A stretch of DNA of 20,704 nt from a virus, in the IMG/VR virus record IMGVR_UViG_3300021959_000515, positions 1 to 20,704 of that record; one strand, 5' to 3'. A model generated the notes under the pieces. That model made no database searches. It was not told where the DNA came from and saw nothing but the letters and a program-made list of their open reading frames with translations. Shown here one piece after another: positions 2,545-20,704 of this stretch. Positions within the stretch are counted from its first letter, which is position 1. Every line of letters starts with the position of its first letter. The position numbers were made by a program, and so were the translations under genes.

Positions 2545-2554
2545 ATCTTGTTCC

Positions 2555-3508
2555 TTAAACTGATTTTGCGAATCTTACTGGAATATCGACTGCGTAGCCT
2601 GTGGTCAGCCCACTTACTCTAACAATTGAGTCGATAATCTTAACGGTTGCAGAAGAGCCTGCTTTGTTATTATATGTCGAGGTGTCTTGAGATCCCAGCC
2701 TATCAAACAAAAAGTTTGATACTCTAAGGTCTTGAGATGATCTAATTTTGAATTTCAACCTTGCACCGACGGGTCCATTAAGTGGAGAGTCAGAATCTCC
2801 AAAGTCAGATTGGTTTACGTTTGTCACAAACGAGGATTGTCCGCCTGCGGCTGAATTTAGGTCCAGCATGTATGTTGCAATATTATCATCATCGACTTTA
2901 GAAACACCAGCCATTTGTCGACCATCGGCACTCATGATAGATCCCAATCGACTATCTATCTCTATCATGAAACTAGTTTCAACTAAAGACCTATCGATCT
3001 CACTCACATTTGATGAGTCAATACCAGAATCAATTACAATGTGTGCCCCTAATTCGTTAGTAGAGAGTCCGTATATCATACCTTTGGTCTGGCCAGATAT
3101 GTTTCCAATCGCCTTATTATTACCTGTAGATCCATCATCCCAAGTCTGCTTATTGACACAGACGATGAAGTTTCCCTGATCTGAAGTTTGGTTATCTCCA
3201 GAATTAACTCCTTCGTTTAGTTTCAACACTGGTAAATATAACAGATTAGGGTTCGGTAGTGACAAAAGTCTAGATTTCATCATTGAAGTATTGTTCGTAA
3301 ATGCTTCCAAAATTGGAGTTTGCAAAATACTAAGATCCTGTAATGCGGTTGTCGAGCCGGTTTGAAACAAAGCATAGTTTATTTCATCATCAGCAAGACC
3401 AAATTGTGTTACTTGGAAACTGCCGTCTCCTAGAGCCAAGCGTCTGCGACCCTCATCCGTTAAGACAACATCCATTATGATGTCTCCGTTGTTTAATTGA
3501 AATGCCAT
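2555..3508 (-). CDS. 317-aa virion structural protein (GD-x-LTDEGRR-type N terminus)
   Basis: The ATG is preceded by AAAAGGAGA with 7 bases of spacing. The first 50 residues hold a compact motif: NNGDIIMDVVLTDEGRRRLA, LGDGSFQVTQFGLADDEINY. The same layout opens the 331-aa protein of this operon, and I associate it with marine phage structural proteins of no known function. The middle is beta-rich and Ser/Asn/Asp-rich (FIVCVNKQTWDDGS, IVIDSGIDSSNVSEID, SFMIEIDSRLGSI). The C-terminal part (GARLKFKIRSSQDLRVSNFL, SATVKIIDSIVRVSG, AVDIPVRFAKSV) looks like a beta domain ending in a closing strand. There is no enzymatic motif. It is probably a minor tail or baseplate component. Confidence 0.93.
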   Translation of the reverse strand: MAFQLNNGDIIMDVVLTDEGRRRLALGDGSFQVTQFGLADDEINYALFQTGSTTALQDLSILQTPILEAFTNNTSMMKSRLLSLPNPNLLYLPVLKLNEGVNSGDNQTSDQGNFIVCVNKQTWDDGSTGNNKAIGNISGQTKGMIYGLSTNELGAHIVIDSGIDSSNVSEIDRSLVETSFMIEIDSRLGSIMSADGRQMAGVSKVDDDNIATYMLDLNSAAGGQSSFVTNVNQSDFGDSDSPLNGPVGARLKFKIRSSQDLRVSNFLFDRLGSQDTSTYNNKAGSSATVKIIDSIVRVSGLTTGYAVDIPVRFAKSV

Positions 3509-3559
3509 TTGATATTCTCCTTTTCTCCAATAATTAGATTCTTTTTAAGTTTATCTCTT
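3509..3559 (-). other. Only sizeable intergenic gap of the operon (51 bases)
   Basis: The gap between the TAG of the 735-aa gene and the ATG of the 317-aa gene is AT-rich. It holds two GGAG-type sites, at 3525-3528 and 3517-3520; the nearer one is correctly spaced for the ATG. I see no convincing -35/-10 pair and no hairpin followed by T residues. Confidence 0.6.
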
Positions 3560-5767
3560 CTAATTCAAGCCATCGCCTTTATTTAATTTAAAAGCAATAT
3601 TGAGATCAACTTTTTTTCCAGTATGTTTCGATGTGATTCGTATTTTAAAAGTTCTATGCTCTGTTCCATAGTTTGACACAAGTGTTCCATCTCCCAGTTC
3701 CCAATTGTTAATACCATCCTCTTCCGTAAATACCAATCTTTCTGGGTTTGGAACAAGTCTGAGTAGCCTTTTCATATTCTTTTCGAATTGATCCCTATCG
3801 TTGGACGGGTATTCATACAGTTTTATGTTTAGCTTATATTCGTCTGAATCTCTCTGTAGTTCAACCTCGATAGGGTGTGTTAGTTGAGATGGTGTGCCAT
3901 GATATGTCAAAGACCTGAACACGTAGTAATATTTCTGATTTGGCATTATTTTGTCACTGAACGATGCTGTCGTTATATCTATATCTTCGGGTGGAAGATT
4001 TTGTGTAACATATTCGTAAGTAGCTGTTTCGTCAACTCTGGCTCGAAAATTATCAGCAAAATCCTCTTTACTTCTAGGAGGATTCTTGGTTCTATACACT
4101 TCATAGATTCCTGTGAAATATTCATGAGTCGCGCGAGATTCTCCGGAATGCTCATAGAGGTTCGCAATATTCTGATCAGAAGGTCTCAAATCTCCCACTC
4201 CTGTCATCTCCGGATCCTCAGACTCACCTATAGAGAAGAACCTAGGTCTAAGCAGAAAGTTAACTGACGGGTCATTTTTTATACCATAAAACTGAATATG
4301 AGGTGGCAGTGTTGGATAATCAACATAGGCAGACTGCAGTCCGTCATTTGGTGTTAAATTTATTTCTATAATTTGAAATGAAGGAACAACTTCGACATCT
4401 ACTTGTGCCCAATATTTAGAGGAGTTGTCACCCAATGATGCAGGTATTTCCTCAACTTCTCCAATCTCGGATGTTGATGTTATGAGATTGGAGTAAGTAT
4501 ATGAACTACCCATTATTCCAACCAAAGCTGTTACCTTGTAGACATACATTATTCCATATTTTAATTGAGTATCAATTAAATTTGGGTTGGTGACATAGTA
4601 TGTCTGAACTGGTGATCCTTGGAAACTGTTTAGATATTTTTCTATCTTATATCCCACAATAACATAATCACTATGTTCCGTATCGAATATAGATTCGATA
4701 TTTCTAGTTTTTTCAAATAGTGTCAATCTAAATTTAGATAGAAATCTAGCAGCAAACACTTGATTGATAAACCTATTTGAATTTCTAGAATCTTGTTGCT
4801 CTTCTTCTGGGAGTAAAAATAATTCATCATCTAAGGATTCAAAACTAGAAATAGAAGTTGATAACAACAAGGATTTGGCATCATGTGTCTTTACGGCCTT
4901 TAGTGATGCGCCAAAACTATCAGACATATAGAAATTGACATATGAAAAGTTCACATTTGTTCGGACGGATTGAATCAAGTTTTTTTTCTTATTATATTGA
5001 TCAATTTCCGGAAATATGTCGCTGATATTATTTGGAATTACAGAATTAGAATTCGAATATATTGCATTAAAATATGGTAATTCAAAATCATATCGGCCCG
5101 TATCTGGATTTATAATCAAAAGATTATTGATGGTAGATGGATTGTTTAAGTTGTATATATTTTCTTGTTTCTTGGCTGCTTGAGCTATGTTGCCACGGAA
5201 GTTTTTTATTCTGTTTCTAAAAGTATCTAGAAGTTCGCTATATCTAATCCCAAAAGTCGAGTTCTCACTATCAAACTTGGTTCTTATTAATCCAATATCA
5301 AACACTTCAGAATCTCTGTAATGGCGAGCATACTCTATCAGGTTGTAGTTTAAGAGCTGGTTCGATGGCAGGTCTTTTGTTGCATCTTCATATTCCGGAT
5401 TGTGAAAGCTCCGCATCACTTCTGATGTCATTGTAGGTAGATTAGTGCTTGTTTGGTGGTCTAAAAAGGGATTGTTAGTTGTGATTGTTTCGCTAACATA
5501 ATTATTCCACTGTGTTTCATCTCTGAAGCTTCGTTCTTTTCCAACAATATTTATTCTGTGTTTTTTTGACTTGAATAGTAGTTGGCTGTCGGAATCTAAA
5601 CTAACTATAGTGTGAGATTGAAGAAGGTTTGATTTATGGGTTGATGGTGGTTCTAAATTAGAATTAACACCATCCCATCCATAATACTTTCCCAATTCGG
5701 CCCTCAGCTTGTCCGGTGCCTCTGCTCTAGAGGATATTGCATTCGTAGAGTCTACTATAGTTGTCAC
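3560..5767 (-). CDS. 735-aa virion protein with fibronectin-III-like regions, GTG start
   Basis: Translation starts at GTG (5765-5767), which overlaps the previous TGA as GTGA. GGAGG lies 6 bases upstream and there is no in-frame ATG for about 110 codons. The N-terminal part is polar (APDKLRAELGKYYGWDG; HKSNLLQSHTIVSLDSDSQL). Residues about 160-215 contain an Arg-rich helix (ELLDTFRNRIKNFRGNIAQA). Residues about 365-430 (YVIVGYKIEKYL, YYVTNPNLI, YGIMYVYKVTALVG) and about 583-637 (YEYVTQNLPP, NQKYYYVFRSLTYHGTPSQL) have the strand order and aromatic pattern of fibronectin type III modules. The last segment (TFKIRITSKHTGKKVDLNIA) looks like a closing beta domain. A structural or tail-tip role is inferred from the modules and the operon; the protein is not recognised by name. 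Confidence 0.92.
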   Translation of the reverse strand: MTTIVDSTNAISSRAEAPDKLRAELGKYYGWDGVNSNLEPPSTHKSNLLQSHTIVSLDSDSQLLFKSKKHRINIVGKERSFRDETQWNNYVSETITTNNPFLDHQTSTNLPTMTSEVMRSFHNPEYEDATKDLPSNQLLNYNLIEYARHYRDSEVFDIGLIRTKFDSENSTFGIRYSELLDTFRNRIKNFRGNIAQAAKKQENIYNLNNPSTINNLLIINPDTGRYDFELPYFNAIYSNSNSVIPNNISDIFPEIDQYNKKKNLIQSVRTNVNFSYVNFYMSDSFGASLKAVKTHDAKSLLLSTSISSFESLDDELFLLPEEEQQDSRNSNRFINQVFAARFLSKFRLTLFEKTRNIESIFDTEHSDYVIVGYKIEKYLNSFQGSPVQTYYVTNPNLIDTQLKYGIMYVYKVTALVGIMGSSYTYSNLITSTSEIGEVEEIPASLGDNSSKYWAQVDVEVVPSFQIIEINLTPNDGLQSAYVDYPTLPPHIQFYGIKNDPSVNFLLRPRFFSIGESEDPEMTGVGDLRPSDQNIANLYEHSGESRATHEYFTGIYEVYRTKNPPRSKEDFADNFRARVDETATYEYVTQNLPPEDIDITTASFSDKIMPNQKYYYVFRSLTYHGTPSQLTHPIEVELQRDSDEYKLNIKLYEYPSNDRDQFEKNMKRLLRLVPNPERLVFTEEDGINNWELGDGTLVSNYGTEHRTFKIRITSKHTGKKVDLNIAFKLNKGDGLN

Positions 5768-8991: not shown

Positions 8992-9986
8992 TAGTCGCAA
9001 TCCTCCAAATCATCAGGTCCGACGCGTGTAGCATAGATATCAAATCGATCAGTTCTTCGATCAGGACAAATAAGCTCTTCGTCTAGAAATTGATTCGTTA
9101 TTTCTAATTTGTCTACCACCTTACAGAGTTCCTCTTGTGATATTTCCTGATCTACATAGAGGTCAAAATAATATTCAACATAGGAACCATCAAGGACAAT
9201 ATAATCCTCAGCAGCTAAGTCAAAAAATGCAGTGTCTCTCTGATTTTCTTCAGGGTCTACACTATCTGATGAATCTAATAACATTTCATTTCTTATGAAG
9301 CTTGACTCTTTCATAAACTTTAAAGGAACTAGATTTTCATCTTCAGATACTTGAAAAACTTCTATTTCAAAATTTTCTTTTTCATAAAAAGAACCGAACT
9401 CTTTTATGTGCATAATGGGGTCAGAGTATTGTATATCGATATAAGATCCATCATCAAATATTTTTGATATATCCTCCCTCCCAAATGATGACACAAGGAT
9501 ATCATTTAATAAAGATGCCTCGAATACGAAGTCTATGTCGACTTGAGGTATCAGCACTGCTCCGCTGGTTGGTGTTTCATATTGAATTTTTGTGCTGTTC
9601 ATATTACCCCTTAACATTGAAACTTGCAAAGCGGGGGCAGTGTCAACAGAATAAGAGGATTTTCCAAGAGCGAAAAGTGAATTTTGTTTTTGATCCATCT
9701 TTTTGTTCATATATCTTTGATTTCCAATTCTAGCTGGGGATTCTAATTGCGGAGCTTCATCTTGAAAAGCTCTATTGATTTTTAGTTTTGGAGTTTCTTC
9801 CATAATTCTTTTGTGAGCAGTGCCTTGTCCTTCTGCAGATTCTTGCGAACCAGCATTTCCATATAGGATATCATCGTCAACAAACTCGTATGAGTGTGGC
9901 TTGAACTTTCCAATAGAATAGAGATAGCGACCATAAGGAGTCATTTCAATTTGCATTACTTCTGTTTTTTTGTTAAAAAATGTCAT
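8991..9986 (-). CDS. Virion-associated protein, N-terminal module shared with the 317-aa protein
   Basis: This protein has 331 residues. The ATG overlaps the previous TGA as ATGA, with GGGAGGA 5 bases upstream. The first 45 residues (KTEVMQIEMTPYGRYLYSIG, then KFKPHSYEFVDDDILYG) follow the same pattern as the start of the 317-aa protein of this operon: a hydrophobic strand, T-x-x-GR, S/A-x-G, F and finally DD-x-I-x-Y. Residues about 50-120 are polar and probably extended. The second half is strongly acidic (LDSSDSVDPEENQRD, DQEISQEELCKVVDKLE) and ends with DDLEDCD. There is no signal peptide or membrane segment. I recognise the type from marine phage structural operons but know of no assigned role; a tail or baseplate component fits the neighbours. 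Confidence 0.92.
   Translation of the reverse strand: MTFFNKKTEVMQIEMTPYGRYLYSIGKFKPHSYEFVDDDILYGNAGSQESAEGQGTAHKRIMEETPKLKINRAFQDEAPQLESPARIGNQRYMNKKMDQKQNSLFALGKSSYSVDTAPALQVSMLRGNMNSTKIQYETPTSGAVLIPQVDIDFVFEASLLNDILVSSFGREDISKIFDDGSYIDIQYSDPIMHIKEFGSFYEKENFEIEVFQVSEDENLVPLKFMKESSFIRNEMLLDSSDSVDPEENQRDTAFFDLAAEDYIVLDGSYVEYYFDLYVDQEISQEELCKVVDKLEITNQFLDEELICPDRRTDRFDIYATRVGPDDLEDCD
9001..9006 (-). promoter_or_regulatory. Ribosome binding site deciding the start of the 302-aa gene
   Basis: GGAGGA on the coding strand lies 9 bases before the ATG at 8991 and inside the last codons of the preceding gene. The competing TTG at 9000 would have no spacer at all, so the site selects the ATG. Confidence 0.75.
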
Positions 9987-12900
9987 ACTATTCCTCCCGG
10001 ACTATTCCCGTCGCCGGAATTGTTACCAGAAAGACCAGCAGAATCATTGCCATCACCTTCGTCAATTTCTCCTAGTGCTCCGCCTAAAGCCCCAGTAATT
10101 CCACCTGCTGCACCTGATGCTTCATCTAGTTCACCGGCCATTGCTGTCATTCCGCCGGGTTGTGCTAACGGAGAGTCAAATCCTTGACCCATTTTGCCGG
10201 CGATATTAGCTTGAATTTCATCAATTGTGGCATCTAGTTGCTCTTGTCTTTCTGCAAGGAAAGCATTTCCAGCTCCGCTTTGAGGTCCGGGATCGTCTCT
10301 GTCAGTGCCCAGTTGCTGCTCCTCTGATGGGGGAGGTAGTGGGTCAAGCACTATGTCGTCTTCCATACCGGCAGCGATTGATATAATTTGTTCGGGCTCT
10401 GCTGTTACAGGGTCCCACGCAGGTATTCCTTCTGTGTAATTCTCTATTGCTTCTTTGCTAAAGTTTCCAAATTCAACCTCGGCATCAATCTTAACTAACT
10501 CAATTAGCGAGAAGAAGTCATAAGGCCAATTGTATTGAATCTTACCTTGAGCTCCAAACTCATCCGTTGTGCTAGAGTTGCTATTGTTATCGCTGGTTTG
10601 TAGGTCCGGATTTTTTTCAATTGTCTTTTTGAAATAATTTGACGCAGCACGCTGTTTGACTTTGAATACCATCCACTTTAGTTCGTGAGGCATATCGATC
10701 AAGGTGTTTCCTGCTGGGCCGCCATTACCAAGCAATTCTTTTTTGAGCAATGGATGGGTAATAGCAACCTCAGAAATCTCCATCTCAGTTCCAATGTCTG
10801 GTGGTAAGTTCTGCCAAATATCAGAAAGATCTTGTTGAGATAATGTATGAGAGAATTCAAAAATATACATTGCGATTGGATCAATATCGTCATAATTGAT
10901 GAAATCAAAAGACGGAGGGAAGATGTATTTGTCCATTTTTTGCATTTGTTTAAGCAAGGTCCTGCCAATTTGAGATTGGGGATCGCCCGTAATTAAACTA
11001 TTGAATAGGGTTGTGTCTCCATTCTTGACTGCTGTTTTATAAATTGTGACCTTATCTTCATCAAGTTTGAAAAATTTCTTTCTAGATCCCTCGACGATAA
11101 AGGGGACTGCTACGACAGCTTCATGAATTTTCTTAGAAGGCCGAATTCTACCAATTTTGGTAGCTTTTCCGGAGAATCCAAGTTTTGCAGCTAAGTTCTG
11201 CATTAAATTAGAATCTGTTTTTCCTAAAACTTGCTTCTGCCAATTTGTCTCAATTGCTTTTACTCCCATGTAAACACCTTCAGTTTCCTCAGGTATCCTA
11301 CCATATTGATGCCAGAGACCTCGAGGCACCACTTCAGATCCATTGGTTGGTAGTGTTATGTTGTTGCTTTCGTGCGATATGTGATTGAAGTTTAACATTG
11401 GACTTTCAAACTTAGTCTGAATAATCCAGCGGTTATCCTGATCAAGTCCTGTGTCAACTACAAAATTACCAGCAGCAGAGCCCCCTTTTATATTATTGAT
11501 AGTTCCTACCGATTTTAAATTTAAAGAGGCAGATAGCTGCAGTGCGTTTGAATTAATAGCGGATGGTCTTTGAGGACCAAGTTGACTAGTTATGGATCGT
11601 CCAGTAGGAGATGTATAGAAAGAGTCATCAAATCTTGTATAATTGTATATGGATGCACTTTGTATTTGCTCAATTGTCATTGCTTCACCAGTGCCCTCAA
11701 CTATAATGTCACACCATGCCTCTCCATGATAATAAGGGGGTGTGAAAGGAAAGTTGTAGCCTAACGAAGAATCTTTTTGAATTATATTTGTTCCGCCATC
11801 AAATCTGTCTTCGTCAAAGTTTAATACCGCACCATTGTAAGTTGTTTTTCCATGAGTTGGAGGACCAAATGCTGATGGTCTTGAATACATCGTAAATGTT
11901 TCTCTAACAGCATTGTCACCAGTTAATATGATGTCTTGAGGTGGTAAATATGTAAGATCTATTTTGCCATCATGATATACTTTGATCCTCTCTTTGTCAT
12001 AAGATCTTTTCATGAAAACTCTCATTCCATAAGTCACACCGGCATCTAATAGTATTCCAGCGCCTTGCTTTTTCGATGCAACTGCTGAGAAGTTTCCATT
12101 AGGTAAGAAGAATTCCGGAATTTCCGCTAAGAAATTATTCATCATTGAAGTGTATAATTGATCTCCAGTTCCACCCCAATAAGCAGAGGCAGAAAGATTA
12201 CCGCTTATATGCGGCTCCATGGATGGAATGTTTTCACCAGCTAAGAAATCCGCTGGTTCTACTAAAGCTTCAAAAGGTATTCTTCTACCAAATGAGTTGT
12301 TTTTGATTTTAAAATCGATTGCATCACCATGGGTGGTATCGCGGACAACAAATAGAGATCCAGAAATTACTGGGTAGTCTACAGCAACACCTGATCTTAT
12401 AGAGTTAAAAAGAATACCCGGTCCAAAAAGAGGAGCGGCAACAAGGCTTTTCCCATAGTTAAATCCGGATATGGTATTGCCTTCGGCATTATAAGTATTT
12501 ATATGTGGTCCATATGAATCATGAAATTGTTTGGCTAAATCGACAGTTCTTTGGCAAGGATAAAAGCCTTCATAAGGCAAAAATTTCTTTATGGCTTTGC
12601 ACCTAAGAGATAAAACTTTTCCGTTAGTAAATTCTTCATGATCTTTATCAACTAGTTCAAATTCCCTCATGAAATCAGAATTAGAATATATCTTATAAAA
12701 ATCTGATTGAGAAGAGTTTTGGGCATTTGCTGCCCCGCCTGTGACATCGAACATGTCTAGTTCTAATGATTTGGGGTTACTAATATAGTCTGCTACTTGT
12801 GTGCTCATTCTAAATTCAGGAACGACTGAATAGTTTTTACCAAATCTCCTAGCTTCTTCGACATATCCCTCGTATGAATCATAAGATGGTTGTCGAGGAG

Positions 12901-14884
12901 CGGAGACATAGTTTCCATTAGAATCTTTAACTTCTCTTTGGCCACCAGCTTCCCACAATGCATTCCCTTCAAATAGAGACGCAGTATTAACAGGAATGCT
13001 TCCAGTTTGTGGAATTGATAAACCGGATGGGTTTGATACAGATGCAGTATTTTGAAGAGCATGTCTTCTAGCATATATTGGATATGGAGACAGAATCATG
13101 TCAAATGCTCGAACGGCTTCATTAGCTAAGACATCATTGCTACTCGTCAAGTATGCAGAGTATGTGTCGGTCATTACATTAAACGTATTGGCTTTAGATG
13201 TGAGAACTCCGTTGCCTTTAGTCTTATAAATATTCCAAGAAGTGTTCGAGCTTATACTGAAGTTTCTAGTTAAAAAGTCTTTGTCGACATCTAAGGGCCA
13301 AGTGCTTGCTTGATAATCTGACCTAGTTGTTGGCCAACCAAACGGTTCTATAGAGCCAGTTTTTAAATATTTGTTTCTATCTTCTCTTCTTGTTCTATAG
13401 AAGCTTTTAAAGTTTGGTCTTTCTAAGTTTTCGTTTTGAAATTGATTTTTCATATGTGGCCAAACAGTTTCTCTGTATTGTAGAAACTCCCAATAGGTCA
13501 AAGGAGATTTTTGAGAATTTAAGCCACCGTCCGCATAAAGTTTATATATTTCAAAATATTCGGTATTGTCTTCTTTTGGTTTGACTTTTAAAAGTTCATC
13601 AACTTCCTTGTTTGCAAAATTAATCAATTGATTACTGAAGCTTGATATTATTGAAAATTTTTGAGGATTATTAAAATCTAGATTACCGTTCTCATCCTTT
13701 ACGTGTCGTCCGACATTCCAAACCAAAGGGTATGCTTTTTGAGCAATAGCTGGTTCAGTGAATCTGTATAGTTTAGAGTATCTATCTTTCACTCTGAACT
13801 CGCCATTTGCCAAAACGTTTCTAGTTGGTCCCGGTTGCACAACAAAACTAAGTGTGCTATTTGCTCTATGATATCTTGTAATTGGGTTTTCTGATGCTCG
13901 AAGTTGAGTCCATGTTGAATATCCGTATGGCCCATTTCTGTGAGTATTTAAAGCTGCGAACTCTTCCACTGCTGTTGGAGTAGCAGGAAAGCCGGCAGCT
14001 TGAAAGGTTCCGGTTCCCGTTGGATTGTCGGAAGTAGTTCCGGTAAACAATTCAAGGTTATTGGCTCCTGTTAAATTGTTGGTTCCGTATGAAGAAGCTG
14101 TGATTACTGTGTTTAGTGCAATACCAGACCCAACAGCTCCTGCCAATTGATTTCCTAAGACCCAATGATCCCTAACACTTCCGGAGTCATAAGGAACATC
14201 TCTGACGATACCATTGTTATAAATTTGATCAACTTCGCTCACCGGAGTGTGAGTAAGTTTTCTATTGTAAGTTGTAACTGTCTGCAGCGATCCTTCTAGT
14301 TCATATATACCAGATGAAAAATAAGCATCCAAAAGGTAAATGGTCGTTGTTGCTGGAAAAGATGATGGAGTTCCAGTTGTATTATTGAGCGCCAGTGGTA
14401 GAAATCCGGCTAATCCATTAATAAAACATTCTGGTTTGTCATCAAAATCGCCAGTCCAAGTTACAGTAAGATTAAACCATTCGCCAACAAATTCCTCAGC
14501 AAAATTACTTAAAGTTGAATAATATGTTTTGTGGTTCGTAGCATCTTGTAATAATTGAATGTTGAATTGGCCTGTGCTGATTGAAATTGAAAGGTTTTGA
14601 ACACCAGTTGAGGCTACTCCTTGATAAATATATCTACTTCCGGCGGTCGAACCGTCCAGATAAACCCAAAATGATAAAGTTATTGGTGTGTTTGCTGAAT
14701 ATCCCGTGACACTGGTATTGCGTAAAAAAGCAAAATTCGTTAAAGTTGCGGGACTTCGAATTGCCTTATCGATAAGGATTTCCGATGTAGTTCTTTTAGA
14801 GAACCCAAGTTTAGTGTTGGTCTCCGTATTTAATTCGTCATTAATTACAGAATTTAACCCTACATGGTCAACAAATATTGGCAT
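9983..14884 (-). CDS. Giant virion structural protein with N-terminal LamG domain and Gly-rich C-terminal tail
   Basis: This protein has 1633 residues. The ATG lies 2 bases after the TAA of the previous gene, with CGGGAG 6 bases upstream inside that gene, so translation is probably coupled. Residues about 1-35 (MPIFVDHVGLN...) are a short leader. Residues about 55-280 form a LamG domain. The long core carries NGPYGYSTWTQLR (about 13905-13945), YEGFYPCQRTVDLAKQFHDS (about 12510-12580), ETFTMYSRPSAFGPP (about 11860-11905), FTPPYYHGEAWCDI (about 11700-11750), SKKIHEAVVAVPF (about 11100-11150), SHTLSQQDLSDIW (about 10820-10860) and NWPYDFFSLIELVK (about 10490-10535). I recognise these as typical of giant structural proteins in uncultivated marine phages but know of no assigned function. 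A helix (ERQEQLDATIDEIQANI) precedes a Gly/Asp/Ser/Asn tail. It likely works with the upstream giant protein in the baseplate or tail fibres. Confidence 0.95.
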   Translation of the reverse strand: MPIFVDHVGLNSVINDELNTETNTKLGFSKRTTSEILIDKAIRSPATLTNFAFLRNTSVTGYSANTPITLSFWVYLDGSTAGSRYIYQGVASTGVQNLSISISTGQFNIQLLQDATNHKTYYSTLSNFAEEFVGEWFNLTVTWTGDFDDKPECFINGLAGFLPLALNNTTGTPSSFPATTTIYLLDAYFSSGIYELEGSLQTVTTYNRKLTHTPVSEVDQIYNNGIVRDVPYDSGSVRDHWVLGNQLAGAVGSGIALNTVITASSYGTNNLTGANNLELFTGTTSDNPTGTGTFQAAGFPATPTAVEEFAALNTHRNGPYGYSTWTQLRASENPITRYHRANSTLSFVVQPGPTRNVLANGEFRVKDRYSKLYRFTEPAIAQKAYPLVWNVGRHVKDENGNLDFNNPQKFSIISSFSNQLINFANKEVDELLKVKPKEDNTEYFEIYKLYADGGLNSQKSPLTYWEFLQYRETVWPHMKNQFQNENLERPNFKSFYRTRREDRNKYLKTGSIEPFGWPTTRSDYQASTWPLDVDKDFLTRNFSISSNTSWNIYKTKGNGVLTSKANTFNVMTDTYSAYLTSSNDVLANEAVRAFDMILSPYPIYARRHALQNTASVSNPSGLSIPQTGSIPVNTASLFEGNALWEAGGQREVKDSNGNYVSAPRQPSYDSYEGYVEEARRFGKNYSVVPEFRMSTQVADYISNPKSLELDMFDVTGGAANAQNSSQSDFYKIYSNSDFMREFELVDKDHEEFTNGKVLSLRCKAIKKFLPYEGFYPCQRTVDLAKQFHDSYGPHINTYNAEGNTISGFNYGKSLVAAPLFGPGILFNSIRSGVAVDYPVISGSLFVVRDTTHGDAIDFKIKNNSFGRRIPFEALVEPADFLAGENIPSMEPHISGNLSASAYWGGTGDQLYTSMMNNFLAEIPEFFLPNGNFSAVASKKQGAGILLDAGVTYGMRVFMKRSYDKERIKVYHDGKIDLTYLPPQDIILTGDNAVRETFTMYSRPSAFGPPTHGKTTYNGAVLNFDEDRFDGGTNIIQKDSSLGYNFPFTPPYYHGEAWCDIIVEGTGEAMTIEQIQSASIYNYTRFDDSFYTSPTGRSITSQLGPQRPSAINSNALQLSASLNLKSVGTINNIKGGSAAGNFVVDTGLDQDNRWIIQTKFESPMLNFNHISHESNNITLPTNGSEVVPRGLWHQYGRIPEETEGVYMGVKAIETNWQKQVLGKTDSNLMQNLAAKLGFSGKATKIGRIRPSKKIHEAVVAVPFIVEGSRKKFFKLDEDKVTIYKTAVKNGDTTLFNSLITGDPQSQIGRTLLKQMQKMDKYIFPPSFDFINYDDIDPIAMYIFEFSHTLSQQDLSDIWQNLPPDIGTEMEISEVAITHPLLKKELLGNGGPAGNTLIDMPHELKWMVFKVKQRAASNYFKKTIEKNPDLQTSDNNSNSSTTDEFGAQGKIQYNWPYDFFSLIELVKIDAEVEFGNFSKEAIENYTEGIPAWDPVTAEPEQIISIAAGMEDDIVLDPLPPPSEEQQLGTDRDDPGPQSGAGNAFLAERQEQLDATIDEIQANIAGKMGQGFDSPLAQPGGMTAMAGELDEASGAAGGITGALGGALGEIDEGDGNDSAGLSGNNSGDGNSPGGIV
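9986..10275 (-). other. Predicted helix plus Gly-rich, probably disordered C-terminal tail of the second giant protein
   Basis: A charged helix (FLAERQEQLDATIDEIQANI, about 10205-10265) with hydrophobic spacing suited to a coiled coil is followed by about 70 residues dominated by Gly, Ala, Asp, Ser and Asn, with AGGITGALGGALGEIDEGDG and a terminal SPGGIV. Nothing in the core of the protein has this composition. It could be an oligomerisation element with a flexible end. Confidence 0.55.
14040..14715 (-). other. LamG domain at the N terminus of the second giant protein
   Basis: Markers in order: TPITLSFWVYLDG, WFNLTVTWTG, ECFINGLAG, TIYLLDAYFS, YELEGSLQTVTTYNRKL, DQIYNNGI, DHWVLGNQ and NNLTGANNLEL. 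The domain is homologous to the C-terminal LamG domain of the preceding gene. It probably contacts glycans or other virion proteins; no metal or sugar ligand can be inferred. Confidence 0.75.
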
Positions 14885-14886
14885 TC

Positions 14887-17800
14887 TTAACTCCCGAGAA
14901 TAGTAGATATTGATGGAAAGACAATTGCCTCATGGTATCCATCTGATGAAGACACAAATCCATTTCTTGGAGCGTAGCCCAAGATTCTTTGGACTGGTGC
15001 GTCTGATCCAGATGTTGCATTACTAATCCACGAGTATTGTAACTCGCTTCTCGGCATCGTTGTATTGATAAAAGCATTGTCATGATTACTACCAGTAATT
15101 ATGCTCGAGCCTGAATATTCCATTCTTTTGCTTGTGTTTCTATGTTGCTTGTTGAAGGATCCATTTGTGGGATAACCATCAACACTTATAACTCCGTATG
15201 TCGCATCAGTTCCAAACTTGCCCATGTGAAGCGCTCTGAGGCTATTCAAGCCCCTTCTGTGGCCCAAGTGGTCTTCCACCCTTATGGCTCCAGTCTCGCC
15301 GCTGTCGGTCAATACAGATAGGTTTCTGAACGGTATTGCATTGTGTGTAGAATATGTCTGTGTGTATGCATCTAGATAACTAGTTGTTTGAACCTCAGGG
15401 CCGCCTGGTGCCGAGAATCTTGTCACAATGTTTCTTTCTGAGCTCGTTAAGTCTGTTCGAGGTATCGTTATGACATTATTTAGTTCCGGTGTCAGAATAT
15501 ATGGCGTAGTTTTTCTTGTTGCAGTATTGTTACCTGCAATCACAGTGAGGTCTCCGGAAGACGTTAAATTATTCTTTCCTCCATAAGATGAAGAAAATAT
15601 TGTTCCAGCAGGGACCGATAGGCCTAATGATAGATTTGGATTTTCGTTCCCTAAAGTCCAATGATCGTAAAGATCACTTGTTCTTATGGGGGTATTCAAA
15701 GATACTCCACTATTATATATTGATTGAGCGTTAGCGAGTGTCAAAGATCCAGAGTATATGGCAAAATTCTGAAGCGCTCCTTGGAGCTCATATGCATTAC
15801 TATTTGAAGTTCCATCATCAAATAGGTAAATTCTTGCTGGTTGTCTAACGGTTGTTACACCATCTGGGCCTGATGTAACTGTGCCGGCTACACCAGACGC
15901 CCCATCCAAAAATAAAGTTGGTGGCTCGGTTGTATCTCCACTCCATGCAATCGCTACATGTCTCCATGTATCAACAAAGGAGTCATACGATATAGTCCAT
16001 CTCCACAATTTGGTGCCACCAGCACCCGCAACTCTATAGTATAATCTACTACTGGTTGAAAAAAATAAAGAAAATGACTCATTATTACTCGAGTCTTGTG
16101 CTCGAACAATGGTCCTGCCTGTTTGGGTATCATTGTTTAAGTTAACCCAAAATGAAAGAGACTTGTGTCCAGTCGTATAATTTGCATATCCGGATACACT
16201 TGTTGACGATGCCATTCTGTAATTGTCAGATGTTGTCTCGGCTGAATTTAAGGCTATGGATTGGACTTCATTTAAAGAGTCGTCAAGTTGTCTATTGTTG
16301 TTGTGTGATCCGAAGATGTTACCAACCTCTTGAGCTCCTTGGCCTACTAGGGTGTGATAGTGTGTGGAGTCGGGAAGTTGTCCTGCGATGCCTGTCGGCA
16401 ATATATCTATGCTTGGATCATCACTTGCTCGTTTCGCCCATGTTTTTTGAAAGGTTGGAGATACTTGAAATATTTCAAGCTCATTCTTGTAGTTACCAAC
16501 CTTCCATGATCCTACTGTGGTCTTAATATTCCTGACGTTTACAGGTCGCTTTGCATGCTCGTCTCGATATCTAGTTGCTTTTTTGGAACCTGTGGAAGGA
16601 TATGGCGCTTCATAATCTGCACCTACAAATCCAAATGCGCCATCATCCGATCCTGATGCAATTGGGTGTGCAGAGATTAGCAACCCCCACCCTTCAGGTC
16701 TATCTGATTGAGTATTGATTCTACCTAGAGTCGTATTGTATTGGTTAATATCGATATGCCTATATTGCAATCCCCCAACATGCTGCTCGGTAAAGGGGCC
16801 CTGCATAGAGGTTTCGTTATAATTGCCCACGACGTCATTGTGTAAGTTGGTAAAGTGAACACCATTTTTGTATTTCTCGTGGACTGTTTTATTGAAGCCC
16901 GTAGTAATAGTTCCGGACATTACGTTCATCGGAACTACGGAGTTGCCCAATATGTTATATGCATATTCGTTACTTTCTTTATTTCCGATTAGGGCGCTAA
17001 AGTTAATTTTTCTTTTTCTCGGAGGGTCATCTATATCATACTCTCCCATTGATCCAGAAATTATTCCTTGACCGGTTCCTACACCTACGGTTATAACGTT
17101 TTGTGGGACTTCCGAGGTTGATCCAAGAGCACCGGCGGGTGCGATTGATTCATGGAACAGTTGAAGATTCTTCTTTCTTCCAAAGTTGGTTCCGCCATGA
17201 ATTGTTTCTTGAGAAACCATCGAAATATCATATAGTTTTGCAAACCTTCTAACTGAAAAGGTATCACTTATTCTAGTGGTTCCGTCGATTTCCCTTCTTA
17301 TCAATCCTGAGGATTGAATCGAGTGATTATTTCTAGAAACTCTCAGAGTTTCTCGTAGGCCAGTTTTCTTCTTTCTATCTATATGCCATAGTGCATTTTG
17401 CTCCTCATTATCAGAGCCGCCAGTAAAGTTTGAAGAGGTTCCGATGCCGTGAGCAGGCCAAAGTGCCGATCCATCAACATGAGTTGCTTGCGCAATCAAC
17501 TGAGTGTTTCCAGATGGACCTGGGACAGATTGAGTTAAACGCAATATCTTACTATCTGATGAGTCAACTGTAGCCACAATACTACCTGCATGACCATTGG
17601 CAGAAGAGATAGCTGTCACTAATTGAGCCGTAACTGTTGTGGAGCTTAATCCTTGAATACCTACTACTACGTGGTTTACAGCACCAGAGCCTGGATCTAA
17701 AGAAACCGTTGTTCCAGTATTTGATGTTGCGGTATTTTGTAGGATATATCTCTTTGTAACGTTATTGTAATCAGTGATTCTTATAGCTGTGTTGTAGAAG

Positions 17801-20704
17801 TTTCCAATCGCTATGGCGTTTAAAGATACGGTAGCTGTTGCTTTCGGTAGAGTTGGGGCATGACCAAGTCTCCAGTTGTATTTCATTTCCGCCAAACCTT
17901 TTATCGAACCTTCTGTTGACTCAAAGTTTGAAAGGATTGGTATTTGATGAACGTATTTGTTTCTTTCTAGGACGTGACTCTCGATAACGTTGTTTATCTT
18001 CTCAGAGAACCTAGCGGATGCCGGCACAAGTTGTTGAAGAGCGATTGATATTGAATCGTCAATCCATTTATAGAATGATGTAAACTTTTCAATATCTGGT
18101 TCGTTCTCAACGTCATCAAAGAAACGATCTCTTAAAAAGTCAGCCATAGAATATCTGTGATGATATCTCTGGTTTGGTTGACCTATAAGATTGTTTAAGT
18201 CCAATGCAGTCGAGAACATACTCATCATCTCATCAGAGATGGTTCCCCACATTGACTTTTCAAAAGAGTAAAAATTGTCAGATACATCTTCGTCAACAAA
18301 GAATTGTTCAGTCTCGTCTGTTTTAATTGTTGTTAAGTCAGATGACATTAGATCATCTGGTAATCTTTTTCTTGCAGAGTAGAGATAGTTCTTATCCAAC
18401 ACCGTTGATGTTGAAGTATTAAAACCAATTCCTTTTGCCGGTATATATCTTTGTATTATGTTTGACAGCGAGCCATAATCATTACGTGCTGATCCAGAGG
18501 AAAGGTCTGAGACCATAAATTCGCCGGATGAATCCGAGCCAGTTAAATCATTAAAGGCCCAATGGAAAGCTAAGGTTTTCTCTCTAGGAACTTCTACAGG
18601 ATAAACGTTAACAATATCTTGCTCAAATGGTTCGTTTGTTCCAAAGGTTTCTGAATCAAAAGCATGTTGATCAATTGCATCATTTGACAAATAACTATGC
18701 CAGTAACGAACGTAGCCAAGTTTAATATCTGAATTGTGGATTACTGACCCTGTAAACTTGGTCCTGTTGGCACCGGCATAGAATATCTTGTCGGAGGAGT
18801 AATAAGATCGTGCTAAGGATGTCGCCGACAAGTGAAAATAGTTTCTCTTCGTATTTCCATCTGCCTCAACACCATAGAACTCTACTAAATAGTCGTCTGG
18901 TGTGCTTATTACCCTATTCGGTCGAGGATAGCTTGAATGTTTCATTCTAACGGCCAAAGACCATTTGTTGTTTTCATATTGTCCAGTATACCAGTCGGTG
19001 TGTATTTTAATATTGGAGCCTGTTAAAACAAATTTAATTCGATGTGAATCACTAGGATCTAGGTTGCTTTCTAATCTATCTCTAACGACATAAACCCGCA
19101 ATCCACTAGTATCTTCTGCTGCGTTATATTCTTGCCCTTCTTTGTAACCCATGATTGATGATGATAGATGTGGAAAAGGATTATAGTTTACTTCATTTTT
19201 TCTTTGTTTTCTTGGAAGAATTATTTCAGATTGCAGCGAAAAGGAACCAATGTAACTTGAGTCCGCTGGTATATATCTTTCGCCGGGCATTTGCGTGTTT
19301 GAGGAAGTTTGGAAAAGAGTTGCATCAAAGTGACCATCAACATTAAAATCAATAAACTTTCTTTCGTATGATTTAAATTCGTAATTGTTTCTCAAAACAA
19401 ATGTGGAGTCATCAGCATACATCTTGAGTTTGACCAAGTCTTGTCCAATACCTAAAGATCTAAAAAAGTTTCTAAATGATTTCTCCGTTCCTTTTGACTT
19501 GTAAATGCATTGTAAATTGTTATATAAATTGTGATATATTGTGTTTCTAACTTCGTTTATTTCTTTTTCGTAAATTTCGTTAGAATCTTTTTGTCTAAAT
19601 GTTTCTAAAATGTTTGCGTCTACAAAAAGATCGGGCATAACGAACCCTTGGTTGTAGAGTAATTGTTTTGCAAATGGTAGCGGTTTGTTTGATCCGCTTA
19701 TATAGTGGTTGTCGTGTATCTTGTTGACAAAGTCTATTTGGTGCCAAAGGGTGTCAAAGTATGACCCCATGATTTGAGCTAGGTGTTTTAGTTGTTTCCC
19801 GTTTTGCTCGTCTTCTTCTTGCATCCATCCCGGAAAGTAACTGTAAAGCATTGACGAGTTTTCCAAGTCCGCTAGAGACCCAGATGTTTTGTATTCTGCT
19901 TTCTTCGCAACTACAGTTGGGTGCGTGGAATATATAATTGGATCTTTAAACTCTGTTAGTCCAAGTTTCTCGGTTATTGCGGAAGATGTAGATCTTGCAC
20001 CAGTGGTTGTTCCAATCATCTTACCATTATTAAATCGACCAGAATAGTCCAACACTGTATCATCTAAAGCGCTATTGCCCGTCACACCTTCGTTAAATTT
20101 AAAGTAACAACCTAAGTCTATGTTGGAATCATGCTTGTTTGTTCCACCACCTACCGGTATAAACCAAGTGTTGTAAATATCTTCGGGCGTTCTTGCCTTT
20201 TTCCAATATCTAAACTCGTCAATAGAAGCACCTCTTAGCTTGTCTGAGCCATCATCATTAGCACCCAATGTTAAGTTTAGTCCACCTTCCGCTGGTAAGA
20301 TTTCAGAGATACCATAAGCAGCAGAGGTTCCAACTTTTTGCCCTGCAAGTTCGCCATTTTTAAATGATTTAAAAACAAGTCCAGAACCTGTTGTCTTTAT
20401 GGTAAATGCAAAATGATTCCACTCATTTCCTGTGGTAGCGTTTGTGACCATGTCTTCAATTACTGTGCTCAAAGATCCTGAGTTCATAACTACCTGCAAT
20501 TTGTCTGTTGATGTTAATTTTATTTTTATATCGCCAGCTTTTGCTGATGATGATATATGCATAATAGTTTTGTCGACAGCCGCATTCATCTTAAGCCAAA
20601 ATTCTATCGTGGCCCCGTCGTCTCCGCGAAACTCAAAAGCAGATGTTCGTTTTTTCTCGGCATCATAAATTGATGAGTTCTCGAAAGTATCGGCAAACTT
20701 TTTA
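14887..20704 (-). CDS. Giant multidomain virion protein with LamG domains, probably baseplate/tail (5' end outside window)
   Basis: The frame stays open to the right edge. The first ATG in the frame (20587-20589) lies inside a LamG domain (TIEFWLKMN spans it), so the true start is outside the window and 1938 codons are visible before TAA. Domains in order: the rest of a LamG/concanavalin A-like domain (about 20000-20704; FWLK, WNHFAFTI, IDEFRYW, DYSGRFNNG); a helical region ending in IYKSKGTEKSFRNFFRSLGI (about 19447-19512), resembling the KGT motif of tail protein I baseplate proteins; a second LamG-like region (about 18530-19290; NKWSLAVRMK, VRYWHSYLSNDAI); a helical stretch with LQQLVPASARFSE and ESHVLERNKY (about 17955-18080); a compact beta insert (17415-17850); a long unassigned part with MQGPFTEQHVGGLQYRH; a third LamG (about 15535-16205); and an end segment with RFSAPGGPEV and PRSELQYSWI. 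The likely role is a large baseplate or tail-tip subunit; function is inferred from domains only. The stop lies 2 bases before the next gene. Confidence 0.93.
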   Translation of the reverse strand, partial: KKFADTFENSSIYDAEKKRTSAFEFRGDDGATIEFWLKMNAAVDKTIMHISSSAKAGDIKIKLTSTDKLQVVMNSGSLSTVIEDMVTNATTGNEWNHFAFTIKTTGSGLVFKSFKNGELAGQKVGTSAAYGISEILPAEGGLNLTLGANDDGSDKLRGASIDEFRYWKKARTPEDIYNTWFIPVGGGTNKHDSNIDLGCYFKFNEGVTGNSALDDTVLDYSGRFNNGKMIGTTTGARSTSSAITEKLGLTEFKDPIIYSTHPTVVAKKAEYKTSGSLADLENSSMLYSYFPGWMQEEDEQNGKQLKHLAQIMGSYFDTLWHQIDFVNKIHDNHYISGSNKPLPFAKQLLYNQGFVMPDLFVDANILETFRQKDSNEIYEKEINEVRNTIYHNLYNNLQCIYKSKGTEKSFRNFFRSLGIGQDLVKLKMYADDSTFVLRNNYEFKSYERKFIDFNVDGHFDATLFQTSSNTQMPGERYIPADSSYIGSFSLQSEIILPRKQRKNEVNYNPFPHLSSSIMGYKEGQEYNAAEDTSGLRVYVVRDRLESNLDPSDSHRIKFVLTGSNIKIHTDWYTGQYENNKWSLAVRMKHSSYPRPNRVISTPDDYLVEFYGVEADGNTKRNYFHLSATSLARSYYSSDKIFYAGANRTKFTGSVIHNSDIKLGYVRYWHSYLSNDAIDQHAFDSETFGTNEPFEQDIVNVYPVEVPREKTLAFHWAFNDLTGSDSSGEFMVSDLSSGSARNDYGSLSNIIQRYIPAKGIGFNTSTSTVLDKNYLYSARKRLPDDLMSSDLTTIKTDETEQFFVDEDVSDNFYSFEKSMWGTISDEMMSMFSTALDLNNLIGQPNQRYHHRYSMADFLRDRFFDDVENEPDIEKFTSFYKWIDDSISIALQQLVPASARFSEKINNVIESHVLERNKYVHQIPILSNFESTEGSIKGLAEMKYNWRLGHAPTLPKATATVSLNAIAIGNFYNTAIRITDYNNVTKRYILQNTATSNTGTTVSLDPGSGAVNHVVVGIQGLSSTTVTAQLVTAISSANGHAGSIVATVDSSDSKILRLTQSVPGPSGNTQLIAQATHVDGSALWPAHGIGTSSNFTGGSDNEEQNALWHIDRKKKTGLRETLRVSRNNHSIQSSGLIRREIDGTTRISDTFSVRRFAKLYDISMVSQETIHGGTNFGRKKNLQLFHESIAPAGALGSTSEVPQNVITVGVGTGQGIISGSMGEYDIDDPPRKRKINFSALIGNKESNEYAYNILGNSVVPMNVMSGTITTGFNKTVHEKYKNGVHFTNLHNDVVGNYNETSMQGPFTEQHVGGLQYRHIDINQYNTTLGRINTQSDRPEGWGLLISAHPIASGSDDGAFGFVGADYEAPYPSTGSKKATRYRDEHAKRPVNVRNIKTTVGSWKVGNYKNELEIFQVSPTFQKTWAKRASDDPSIDILPTGIAGQLPDSTHYHTLVGQGAQEVGNIFGSHNNNRQLDDSLNEVQSIALNSAETTSDNYRMASSTSVSGYANYTTGHKSLSFWVNLNNDTQTGRTIVRAQDSSNNESFSLFFSTSSRLYYRVAGAGGTKLWRWTISYDSFVDTWRHVAIAWSGDTTEPPTLFLDGASGVAGTVTSGPDGVTTVRQPARIYLFDDGTSNSNAYELQGALQNFAIYSGSLTLANAQSIYNSGVSLNTPIRTSDLYDHWTLGNENPNLSLGLSVPAGTIFSSSYGGKNNLTSSGDLTVIAGNNTATRKTTPYILTPELNNVITIPRTDLTSSERNIVTRFSAPGGPEVQTTSYLDAYTQTYSTHNAIPFRNLSVLTDSGETGAIRVEDHLGHRRGLNSLRALHMGKFGTDATYGVISVDGYPTNGSFNKQHRNTSKRMEYSGSSIITGSNHDNAFINTTMPRSELQYSWISNATSGSDAPVQRILGYAPRNGFVSSSDGYHEAIVFPSISTILGS
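15535..16205 (-). other. LamG domain 3 (C-terminal third of first giant protein), homologous to the LamG domain of the next gene
   Basis: The domain contains SVSGYANYTTGHKSLSFWVN, TWRHVAIAWSG, LFLDGASG, YELQGALQNFAIYSG, QSIYNSGV, YDHWTLGNEN and SSYGGKNNLTSSGDLTVI. The same ordered markers (SVTGYSANTPITLSFWVYL, WFNLTVTWTG, CFINGLAG, YELEGSLQ, DQIYNNGI, RDHWVLGN, SSYGTNNLTGANNLEL) occur at the start of the following gene, so the two domains are homologous over about 220 residues. It interrupts the path between SLNEVQSIALNS and a conserved-looking RFSAPGGPEV segment. Confidence 0.75.
17415..17850 (-). other. Compact repeat-type beta domain inserted in the first giant protein
   Basis: About 145 residues of low-charge Thr/Ser/Ala/Val sequence start at TATVSLNAIAIGNF and close with SSNFTGGSDNEE. 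Inside are KRYILQNTATSNTG, VTAQLVTAISSANGHAG and LRLTQSVPGPSGNTQLIAQ. I remember domains ending in a LTQ-x-x-x-G-x-x-GNT...NFTGG pattern as recurrent inserts in giant virion proteins of marine phages; this was not searched. It sits between the LERNKY helical segment and the conserved ALWHIDRKKK segment, and looks like an add-on rather than part of the core. Confidence 0.5.
18530..19290 (-). other. LamG-like beta region 2 of the first giant protein
   Basis: This beta-rich stretch contains HRIKFVLTGSNIKI, NKWSLAVRMK, VEFYGVEADG and KLGYVRYWHSYLSNDAIDQH, and ends with LAFHWAFNDLTGSDSSG followed by VSDLSSG. The order of expression strand, ligand-face strand, RYW strand and WxFN/D-SSG closing strand is the same as in the LamG domain nearest the right edge. 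Sequence divergence is large, so the fold is an inference. Confidence 0.5.
19430..19900 (-). other. Helical region resembling tail protein I (P2 gpI-type baseplate protein)
   Basis: The segment runs from HLAQIMGSYFDTLWHQIDF through PFAKQLLYNQGF and EVRNTIYHNLYNNL to YKSKGTEKSFRNFFRSLGI. Tail protein I family members (Pfam Tail_P2_I; P2 gpI, functionally linked to T4 gp7) typically show an early helix around L-A-x-x-L, a run of helices, and a late KGT-x-x-x-[IL]-x-x-x-[FL]-x-x-x-G motif. That order is matched here. The match is by eye. If right, it places this giant protein in the baseplate wedge next to a baseplate J-like protein that would be encoded just upstream, outside the window. Confidence 0.4.
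20000..20704 (-). other. LamG/concanavalin A-like domain 1 of the first giant protein (cut by window edge)
   Basis: The translated stretch has the usual LamG-3 order: a beta strand with FWLK, then WNHFAFTI, KNGELAG, then LRGASIDEFRYWKKARTPED, and finally a second strand set with YFKFNEG and DYSGRFNNGK. Such jelly-roll domains bind glycans or act as protein-protein modules in phage fibres. The N-terminal strands lie partly outside the window. No ligand can be named from the sequence. Confidence 0.7.

What the first reader, a model, noticed from the sequence alone, without database searches (positions are those of the whole stretch)
19430..19900. Tail protein I-like region inside a LamG-decorated giant protein
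A helical segment ending in YKSKGTEKSFRNFFRSLGI follows the pattern of the P2 gpI/tail protein I family, which sits in contractile baseplate wedges. If true, this giant protein is a wedge subunit with lectin domains on both sides rather than a free fibre, and it would give this otherwise anonymous virion class an anchor to known baseplate architecture.
Basis: inference. Interest (0 to 1): 0.55.

Follow-up and report, generated by a model that had tools for sequence, protein, structure and literature searches.

The report
Lectin-decorated gp7-like baseplate wedge protein
A very large phage protein seems to be a core building block of a contractile tail's baseplate with sugar-binding-type domains built into and around it, which links a common but poorly described group of aquatic T4-like viruses to known tail machinery.

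Summary
The segment is real: YKSKGTEKSFRNFFRSLGI lies at 19447-19503 (-), in an ORF of at least 1938 residues that runs off the right window edge. No Tail_P2_I model reaches its cut-off, so it is not filed in that Pfam family. Several lines still place the protein in the gp7 / P2 gpI / Tri2 class of wedge subunits. In 73 of 80 relatives it closes a contiguous block gp25 - gp6 - X - giant. The NCBIfam "phage tail protein domain" is the commonest, always sub-threshold, family in two non-overlapping sets of relatives (23 of 55; 17 of 38), though not in the window sequence itself. The KGT helix aligns with P2 gpI and with T4 gp7 ~732-751, weakly. At E <= 10 only six of 50,697 phage records (three lineages) match the motif, exactly those with a full-length relative of this gp6. 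The module is split: KGT half, inserted pentraxin/LamG-like domain, "PA" helix half; both halves match lineages with and without that insert. Long relatives carry a T4-type portal (13 of 18) and sheath (6 of 18), so this is a Far-T4-like contractile phage. Models of the helical part are weak. New variant of a known kind.

The parts
14887..20703 (-). Giant ORF (>=1938 aa; 5' end beyond the window; by comparison with L001 about 135 aa are missing)
20176..20631 (-). LamG-1 (Laminin_G_3), residues 25-176, N-terminal to the wedge-like module
   Evidence: family E 6e-28 for the whole protein, two stretches
19369..19902 (-). gp7/gpI-like half A: helical part with the KGT motif, residues 268-445
   Evidence: TIGR02242 sub-threshold in relatives only
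19447..19503 (-). Motif YKSKGTEKSFRNFFRSLGI (KGT itself at 19486-19494)
18370..19371 (-). Inserted ConA/pentraxin/LamG-like domain (LamG-2), residues about 445-778, between the two halves
   Evidence: AF2 blocks mostly of pLDDT 86-94; best Z 16.8; no Pfam LamG hit
17944..18186 (-). gp7/gpI-like half B: helices with LVPASARF and ESHVLERNKY, residues 840-920; P894 corresponds to invariant P334 of A3
15733..16185 (-). LamG-3 (Laminin_G_3), residues 1507-1657
   Evidence: E 6.4e-13
9983..14884 (-). Next gene downstream, 1633 aa, also with an N-terminal LamG; neighbour, role unknown

Best explanation
The giant protein is the gp7 / P2 gpI / Tri2-class subunit of a contractile-tail baseplate wedge in a Far-T4-like phage. 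Its split helical module (half A with KGT at 19369-19902, half B with the PA helix at 17944-18186) is the wedge part. By analogy it pairs with two copies of the gp6-like protein encoded two genes upstream, under gp25, in a (gp6)2-gp7 wedge. LamG domains lie N-terminal to this module, inside it and C-terminal to it, and would be displayed at the baseplate rim, where they bind host surface glycans or hold fibres. Shown: gene order in relatives, homology of both halves across lineages with and without the LamG insert, and the register of the KGT match. Inferred: membership of the gp7 class, heterotrimer formation, position in the virion, glycan binding.
For: (1) Synteny: gp25 - gp6 - X - giant contiguous in 73 of 80 relatives, near-duplicates included; gp25 by Pfam E 4.6e-12, gp6 by phrog_219 E 5e-18 in L003. 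(2) NCBIfam TIGR02242 'phage tail protein domain' is the commonest family in 23 of 55 members of A2 (best E 0.0023; next family 4 of 55) and in 17 of 38 members of A5, which shares no locus with A2 (best 0.0026; next 2 of 38); where the position is shown (L278) it covers the KGT segment. (3) Window family vs immuto family 98.7%, E 2e-16, 157 columns; vs Mel 97.8%; vs LR 96.6%. (4) The KGT segment aligns in register with P2 gpI (P 0.0011-0.015 with lineage profiles as target; 0.00035-0.021 the other way round; joint 0.0023), and the window family with T4 gp7 732-751 (P 0.0024-0.017). (5) A 66-aa motif query at E <= 10 finds 6 of 50,697 phage records (three lineages), exactly the 6 with >=80% coverage by the gp6 query. 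(6) Half B of the window family matches that of Mel (E 1.4e-7) and immuto (E 1.2e-7). (7) Of 16 PDB chains aligned in the second look the only two with Z >= 2 are a Streptomyces contractile-injection baseplate chain and a T4 baseplate chain at residues 632-908. (8) T4 portal in 13 of 18 records, sheath in 6 of 18.
Against: No Tail_P2_I or TIGR02242 match reaches a cut-off (L278 14.2 of 51.85 bits); the window's own 261-residue segment has no NCBIfam hit at E <= 1; five full-length KGT proteins (L001, L070, immuto, Mel, LR) give none either. No gpI/gp7 PHROG appears among 48 members, and Pfam lists none in the 25 of 26 families shown. PDB profile searches find no baseplate protein. The window-family profile vs gpI (P 0.0038 and 0.021) is not separable from its reversed decoys (0.009, 0.011) or from control X (0.0095). 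Half B does not match gpI. The immuto profile aligns elsewhere on gp7, and LR only at P 0.14 on the slice. The model used for the fold search has mean pLDDT 51; Z 4.5 and 3.3 at 8.2 and 10.6 A are below what the tool trusts; plain Foldseek ranked the T4 chain fourth of four at E 9.5. The gene is not adjacent to gp6.
Confidence: 0.77

Rival explanations
1. It is a baseplate-attached giant fibre or adhesin whose helical module is only an anchoring domain with its own KGT-like motif; the wedge gp7 role is filled by another protein.
For: Length varies widely (39 of 40 complete ORFs 1673-3767 aa, one 725); the N-terminal module is not shared with immuto or Mel; three LamG-type domains are typical of adhesins.
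Against: In 73 of 80 loci (chosen by this module) it is fixed behind gp25-gp6-X; immuto-type relatives keep both halves with a much shorter spacing.
Confidence: 0.14
2. Gene X, directly after gp6, is the true gpI/gp7, and the giant is a later wedge protein (gp8/gp10-like).
For: X occupies the gpI position next to gp6; X vs the P2 gpI profile P 0.0095.
Against: That match is 21 columns downstream of KGT in gpI; X gives only weak Pfam hits, best Disaggr_repeat E 0.0025 in L003. The KGT segment and the tail-protein-domain signal are in the giant's relatives; X was not scanned against NCBIfam.
Confidence: 0.06
3. The KGT resemblance is a chance short motif with no relation to baseplates.
For: Individual profile scores to gpI and gp7 are weak, and reversed decoys and one control reach similar P.
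Against: Two non-overlapping sets give the same family; the motif search returns the same phages as gp6; gene order.
Confidence: 0.03

Closest known systems
T4 gp7 (baseplate wedge initiator)
   Same: Large protein of the gp6/gp25-type wedge set; YKSKGTEKSFRNFFRSL aligns with T4 gp7 ~732-751, and the weak structural match falls on residues 632-908 of a T4 baseplate chain.
   Different: No significant match outside the KGT segment; carries LamG domains; one gene (X) separates it from gp6, whereas T4 gene 7 directly follows gene 6.
P2 gpI / Tail_P2_I; pyocin Tri2 PA0619
   Same: KGT helix followed by a strand; gene set W/gp25 - J/gp6 - I; the 'PA' residues of half B resemble P2 DAKPASRH by eye.
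   Different: 176-177 aa against >=1938 aa; below the Pfam/NCBIfam cut-offs; half B match to gpI not detected by profile.
AlgoCIS Alg11/Alg12 and Vp4 Gp119 (passages read, PMC8894135, PMC11406892)
   Same: Carbohydrate-binding modules built into baseplate wedge proteins; the gp7-like part of Alg12 is called an evolutionary hotspot that binds fibres.
   Different: There the CBMs are in Alg11 (partner of the gp6/gp7-like Alg12) or in wedge protein 3, not inside a gp7/gpI module; no LamG in the passages read.
Flavobacterium phage immuto_161, Microcystis phage Mel-JY01 WWT39511, LR756508 ORF
   Same: Homologous KGT half in all three and PA half in the immuto and Mel families, with a gp6-like gene upstream.
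   Different: Annotated hypothetical or not annotated; immuto type has no LamG-size insert (spacing 168-227 in 17 loci); different N-terminal module in immuto and Mel.

Membership tests
Tail_P2_I (PF09684) / TIGR01634 | Curated HMM score over cut-off | tested here: not met
   No PF09684 match in the window or in 15 related records; TIGR01634 in 1 of 55 at E 0.13
TIGR02242 phage tail protein domain | Score over 51.85 bits | tested here: not met
   14.2 bits for L278; weak in 23 of 55 and 17 of 38, none for the window segment itself
gpI / gp7 class wedge subunit | Encoded with gp25 and J/gp6 | tested here: met
   73 of 80 relatives contiguous gp25-gp6-X-giant; one intervening gene; not visible in the window itself, which ends inside the giant
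gpI / gp7 class wedge subunit | Conserved KGT helix after a helical N-terminal part | tested here: met
   K180 and G181 invariant and T182 at 90% or more in the 55 rows of A2; in register with gpI and, for the window family, T4 gp7, at weak scores
gpI / gp7 class wedge subunit | Fold: helix-turn-helix core bundle plus trifurcation domain | tested here: inconclusive
   AF2 mean pLDDT 51, N-terminal helical pair about 80; Z 4.5 and 3.3; Foldseek E 9.5
gpI / gp7 class wedge subunit | One copy with two gp6 copies per wedge in the virion | not testable with these tools
   Needs cryo-EM or biochemistry
Far-T4 / T4-superfamily phage | T4-type portal (gp20) | tested here: met
   In 13 of 18 long relatives over cut-off, E 2.0e-81 to 1.8e-78; the 20.7-kb window record itself was not searched for it

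The most novel reading that the evidence does not exclude
In this widespread aquatic clade the wedge core subunit itself is the receptor-binding organ: LamG lectins between the KGT half and the PA helix half, and on both sides of the gp7-class module, bind host glycans and pull directly on the (gp6)2-gp7 iris, so that recognition and firing are coupled in one polypeptide rather than through separate fibres.
Probability: 0.25. Interest if true: 0.65.

Novelty: new variant of a known kind. Interest (0 to 1): 0.47.

Why it matters
It gives a likely function and structural address to a giant protein whose closest predicted-structure neighbours carry no functional name. If right, the gp7/gpI class tolerates whole lectin domains inside its fold, with a KGT-to-PA spacing that runs from 60 residues (P2, by eye) to 821 (a Mel-type relative). 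It makes the coupling of glycan binding to baseplate opening testable in isolated relatives such as Flavobacterium phage immuto.

Tried and rejected
tblastn of the whole giant against 50,697 phage records found nothing at E 0.01. PDB profile searches with A2 and A3 found no baseplate protein: best DotG E 0.067 and ribosomal eL6 E 0.32. phrog_32859, the best PHROG in the region (E 0.005-0.019; 3 of 48 members), has no known function and was not pursued. The 50 rows shown for the 711-aa window model all align within residues 217-604, mostly 221-554, chiefly with LamG/pentraxin-type folds, so they say nothing about the KGT half. The second model (immuto-type, L278 first) was too low in confidence to prove the fold; tail-I-like chains other than 9gtp_A and 5iv5_BJ are absent from its list, which is uninformative. 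I considered whether the module resembles the phages' own gp6: no clear match (prob 0.3-7%). That half B equals the PA helix of P2 gpI rests on eye alignment only; the profile test was negative. IMG/VR relatives of P2 gpI were too alike (99-100%), so 13 further phage gpI sequences were fetched.

Rows dropped: A1 holds 47 of 63 full-coverage loci of 80, and A2 54 of 80 (near-duplicates removed). A3 holds 12 of 17 immuto-type, 28 of 66 usable Mel-type and 44 window-type loci plus the window. The LR profile is a single sequence. The KGT-to-PA count gave a value for 52 of 80 window-type ORFs, by a loose text pattern, and for 59 Mel-type loci. The count 'KGT in 79 of 80' only asks whether the string occurs anywhere in the ORF and is not used as evidence.

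Paper searches: six. No listing showed a LamG-bearing gp7/gpI; that speaks of those listings and the passages read only.
Full report
What is there. The window is a 20,704-base virus record. Nine ORFs longer than 300 aa, all on the minus strand, fill it. The first, 14887-20703, is open at the right edge; comparison with relative L001 suggests that about 135 N-terminal residues lie outside.

Relatives. A scan of IMG/VR with residues 236-460 gave 246 stretches, 236 of which encode a relative; 80 were kept. Of 40 complete ORFs one has 725 aa and 39 have 1673-3767; incomplete ones reach 4121. The part equivalent to window residues 1-930 is the shared core (58-80 of 80 by 30-residue block); residues 954-1098 are an insertion relative to L001.

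Neighbourhood. In L003 the genes before the giant are a 133-aa gp25 (GPW_gp25 E 4.6e-12; phrog_261 E 4.5e-13), a 598-aa gp6-like protein (phrog_219 baseplate wedge subunit E 5e-18; Baseplate_J E 0.028, below cut-off) and X, 465 aa. L001 agrees for gp25 and gp6. Baseplate_J matched in 3 of 15 records, none over cut-off. Of the 80 loci, 73 hold gp25, gp6, X and giant in contiguous order; X was found in 79, gp6 in 77, gp25 in 73, and in one locus the giant itself is cut at its 5' end. These loci include near-duplicates. T4-type portal was over cut-off in 13 of 18 long records; sheath matched in 6 of 18, one over cut-off. The nearest phages by portal are LR756508, immuto, Mel-JY01 and then Rhodothermus phage RM378, the sole Far-T4-like isolate according to PMC7198788 (passages read).

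Is it gpI/gp7? Sub-threshold but consistent. NCBIfam TIGR02242 is the most frequent family among 55 members of A2 (23; next 4), though the window row itself has no hit, and among 38 members of A5, which shares no locus with A2 (17; next 2). hhalign of the window family against T4 gp7 aligns YKSKGTEKSFRNFFRSL with FYSTKGIEASYKFLFKVL at T4 732-751 (P 0.017 with A2, 0.0069 with the shorter profile, 0.0024 on the 601-900 slice). Against P2 gpI the four lineage profiles gave P 0.0011-0.015 as target and 0.00035-0.021 as query, at the KGT segment. Of 36 reversed-decoy comparisons 33 had P >= 0.067; the other three were 0.009 and 0.011 (window family with gpI) and 0.021 (immuto with Mel). Of 18 control comparisons (gp25, gp6, X, LamG-2 and two further parts of the giant including half B, each against three targets) the best was X vs gpI at P 0.0095 and the other 17 were >= 0.046. 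So the window-family score to gpI alone is not separable from noise; the Mel score is better, and the case rests on agreement between lines.

The cultured bridge. The gp6-like protein finds 195 phage records; six are covered by 80% or more: four immuto records, Mel-JY01 and the uncultured LR756508 (29.9-32.0% identity). A 66-aa query around the KGT motif finds exactly these six of 50,697 records at E <= 10 (E 0.01 to 6), three lineages in all. Their KGT proteins lie two or three genes after gp6. Profiles of the window, immuto, Mel and LR families are homologous over 153-182 columns (96.6-99.9%).

The split module. In an 85-row alignment K163, K165, G166, G179, P334 and R352 (L278 numbering) are invariant. 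The C-terminal helix half of the window family matches those of Mel (94.0%, E 1.4e-7) and immuto (94.2%, E 1.2e-7), with reversed controls at most 0.4%. The KGT-to-PA distance is 168-227 residues in 17 immuto-type loci and 456-458 or 821 in 59 Mel-type loci; 367-532 in the 52 window-type ORFs that gave a value, 522 in LR and 60 in P2; 490 in the window protein. There the gap is filled by a ConA-like domain (most pLDDT blocks 86-94; Z up to 16.8). The N-terminal module with LamG-1 is not shared with Mel or immuto (prob 2.0 and 0.4%), although Mel and immuto share theirs (99.9%). The inserts of the window and Mel families match each other only weakly (prob 30.6%, P 0.0005; reversed 0.39).

Structure. 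The 711-aa window model has mean pLDDT 68 with a poor helical part. The 362-aa immuto-type model has mean 51, its N-terminal helical pair near 80. VIA-align aligned the 16 chains that Foldseek offered; two had Z >= 2: 9gtp_A (Streptomyces contractile injection baseplate, Z 4.5, 159 aligned, 8.2 A) and 5iv5_BJ (T4 baseplate, residues 632-908, Z 3.3, 179 aligned, 10.6 A). That BJ is gp7 is inferred from its length and from 5iv5 holding the gp7 sequence. That 9gtp_A is the tail-I-like chain is inferred from 9gtp_E, 190 aa, which the gpI profile hits at E 0.082 with an RGT in the KGT place. Foldseek alone put 5iv5_BJ fourth of four at E 9.5. In BFVD the closest entries to the window model are long proteins without a functional name.

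Mechanism. Vibrio phage XM1 gp17, whose T4 ortholog is given as gp7, forms the core bundle with two gp16 and binds tail spikes through residues 80-106 and 201-242 (PMC10457771, passages read). TssG, T4 gp7 and P2 gpI are named as proposed counterparts in PMC6300606 (passages read). By this analogy halves A and B hold the wedge and the LamG domains take the place of the spike-binding loops. Lectin-type decoration of wedges has precedents: Alg11 of AlgoCIS with two CBMs, where the gp7-like part of Alg12 is called an evolutionary hotspot (PMC8894135), and Vp4 Gp119, which binds cells (PMC11406892; passages read in both). Glycan binding by these LamG domains is inferred, not tested.

Verdict. Not a member of Pfam Tail_P2_I by its own test, but probably a gp7/gpI-class wedge subunit with LamG domains on both sides and one inside. 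New variant of a known kind.

Noticed in passing
window 9983-14884 (-): The next gene (1633 aa) also begins with a Laminin_G_3 domain (E 1.8e-6).
   Followed up: no
L003:7449-8846 and equivalents: Gene X between gp6 and the giant is conserved (79 of 80 loci) and only weakly resembles a Disaggregatase-related repeat (E 0.0025 in L003); in L001 it is 131 aa longer, apparently by an internal insertion.
   Followed up: partly
alignment A5 (one of 38 members; the tool does not name it): A FISUMP domain (TIGR02145, E 1.8e-17) lies inside the stretch around the wedge-like module in one relative; L296 has KGT displaced to residue 741 and may be that member.
   Followed up: no
L361: A Mel-type relative with 1693 aa and a 1025-residue module stretch (about 660 in the others printed), so probably the one with the 821-residue gap: perhaps a second insertion at the same site.
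   Followed up: no
window residues 954-1098 of the giant (about 17410-17844): A stretch absent from the closest relative L001; its middle is covered by about 2 of 80 relatives.
   Followed up: no
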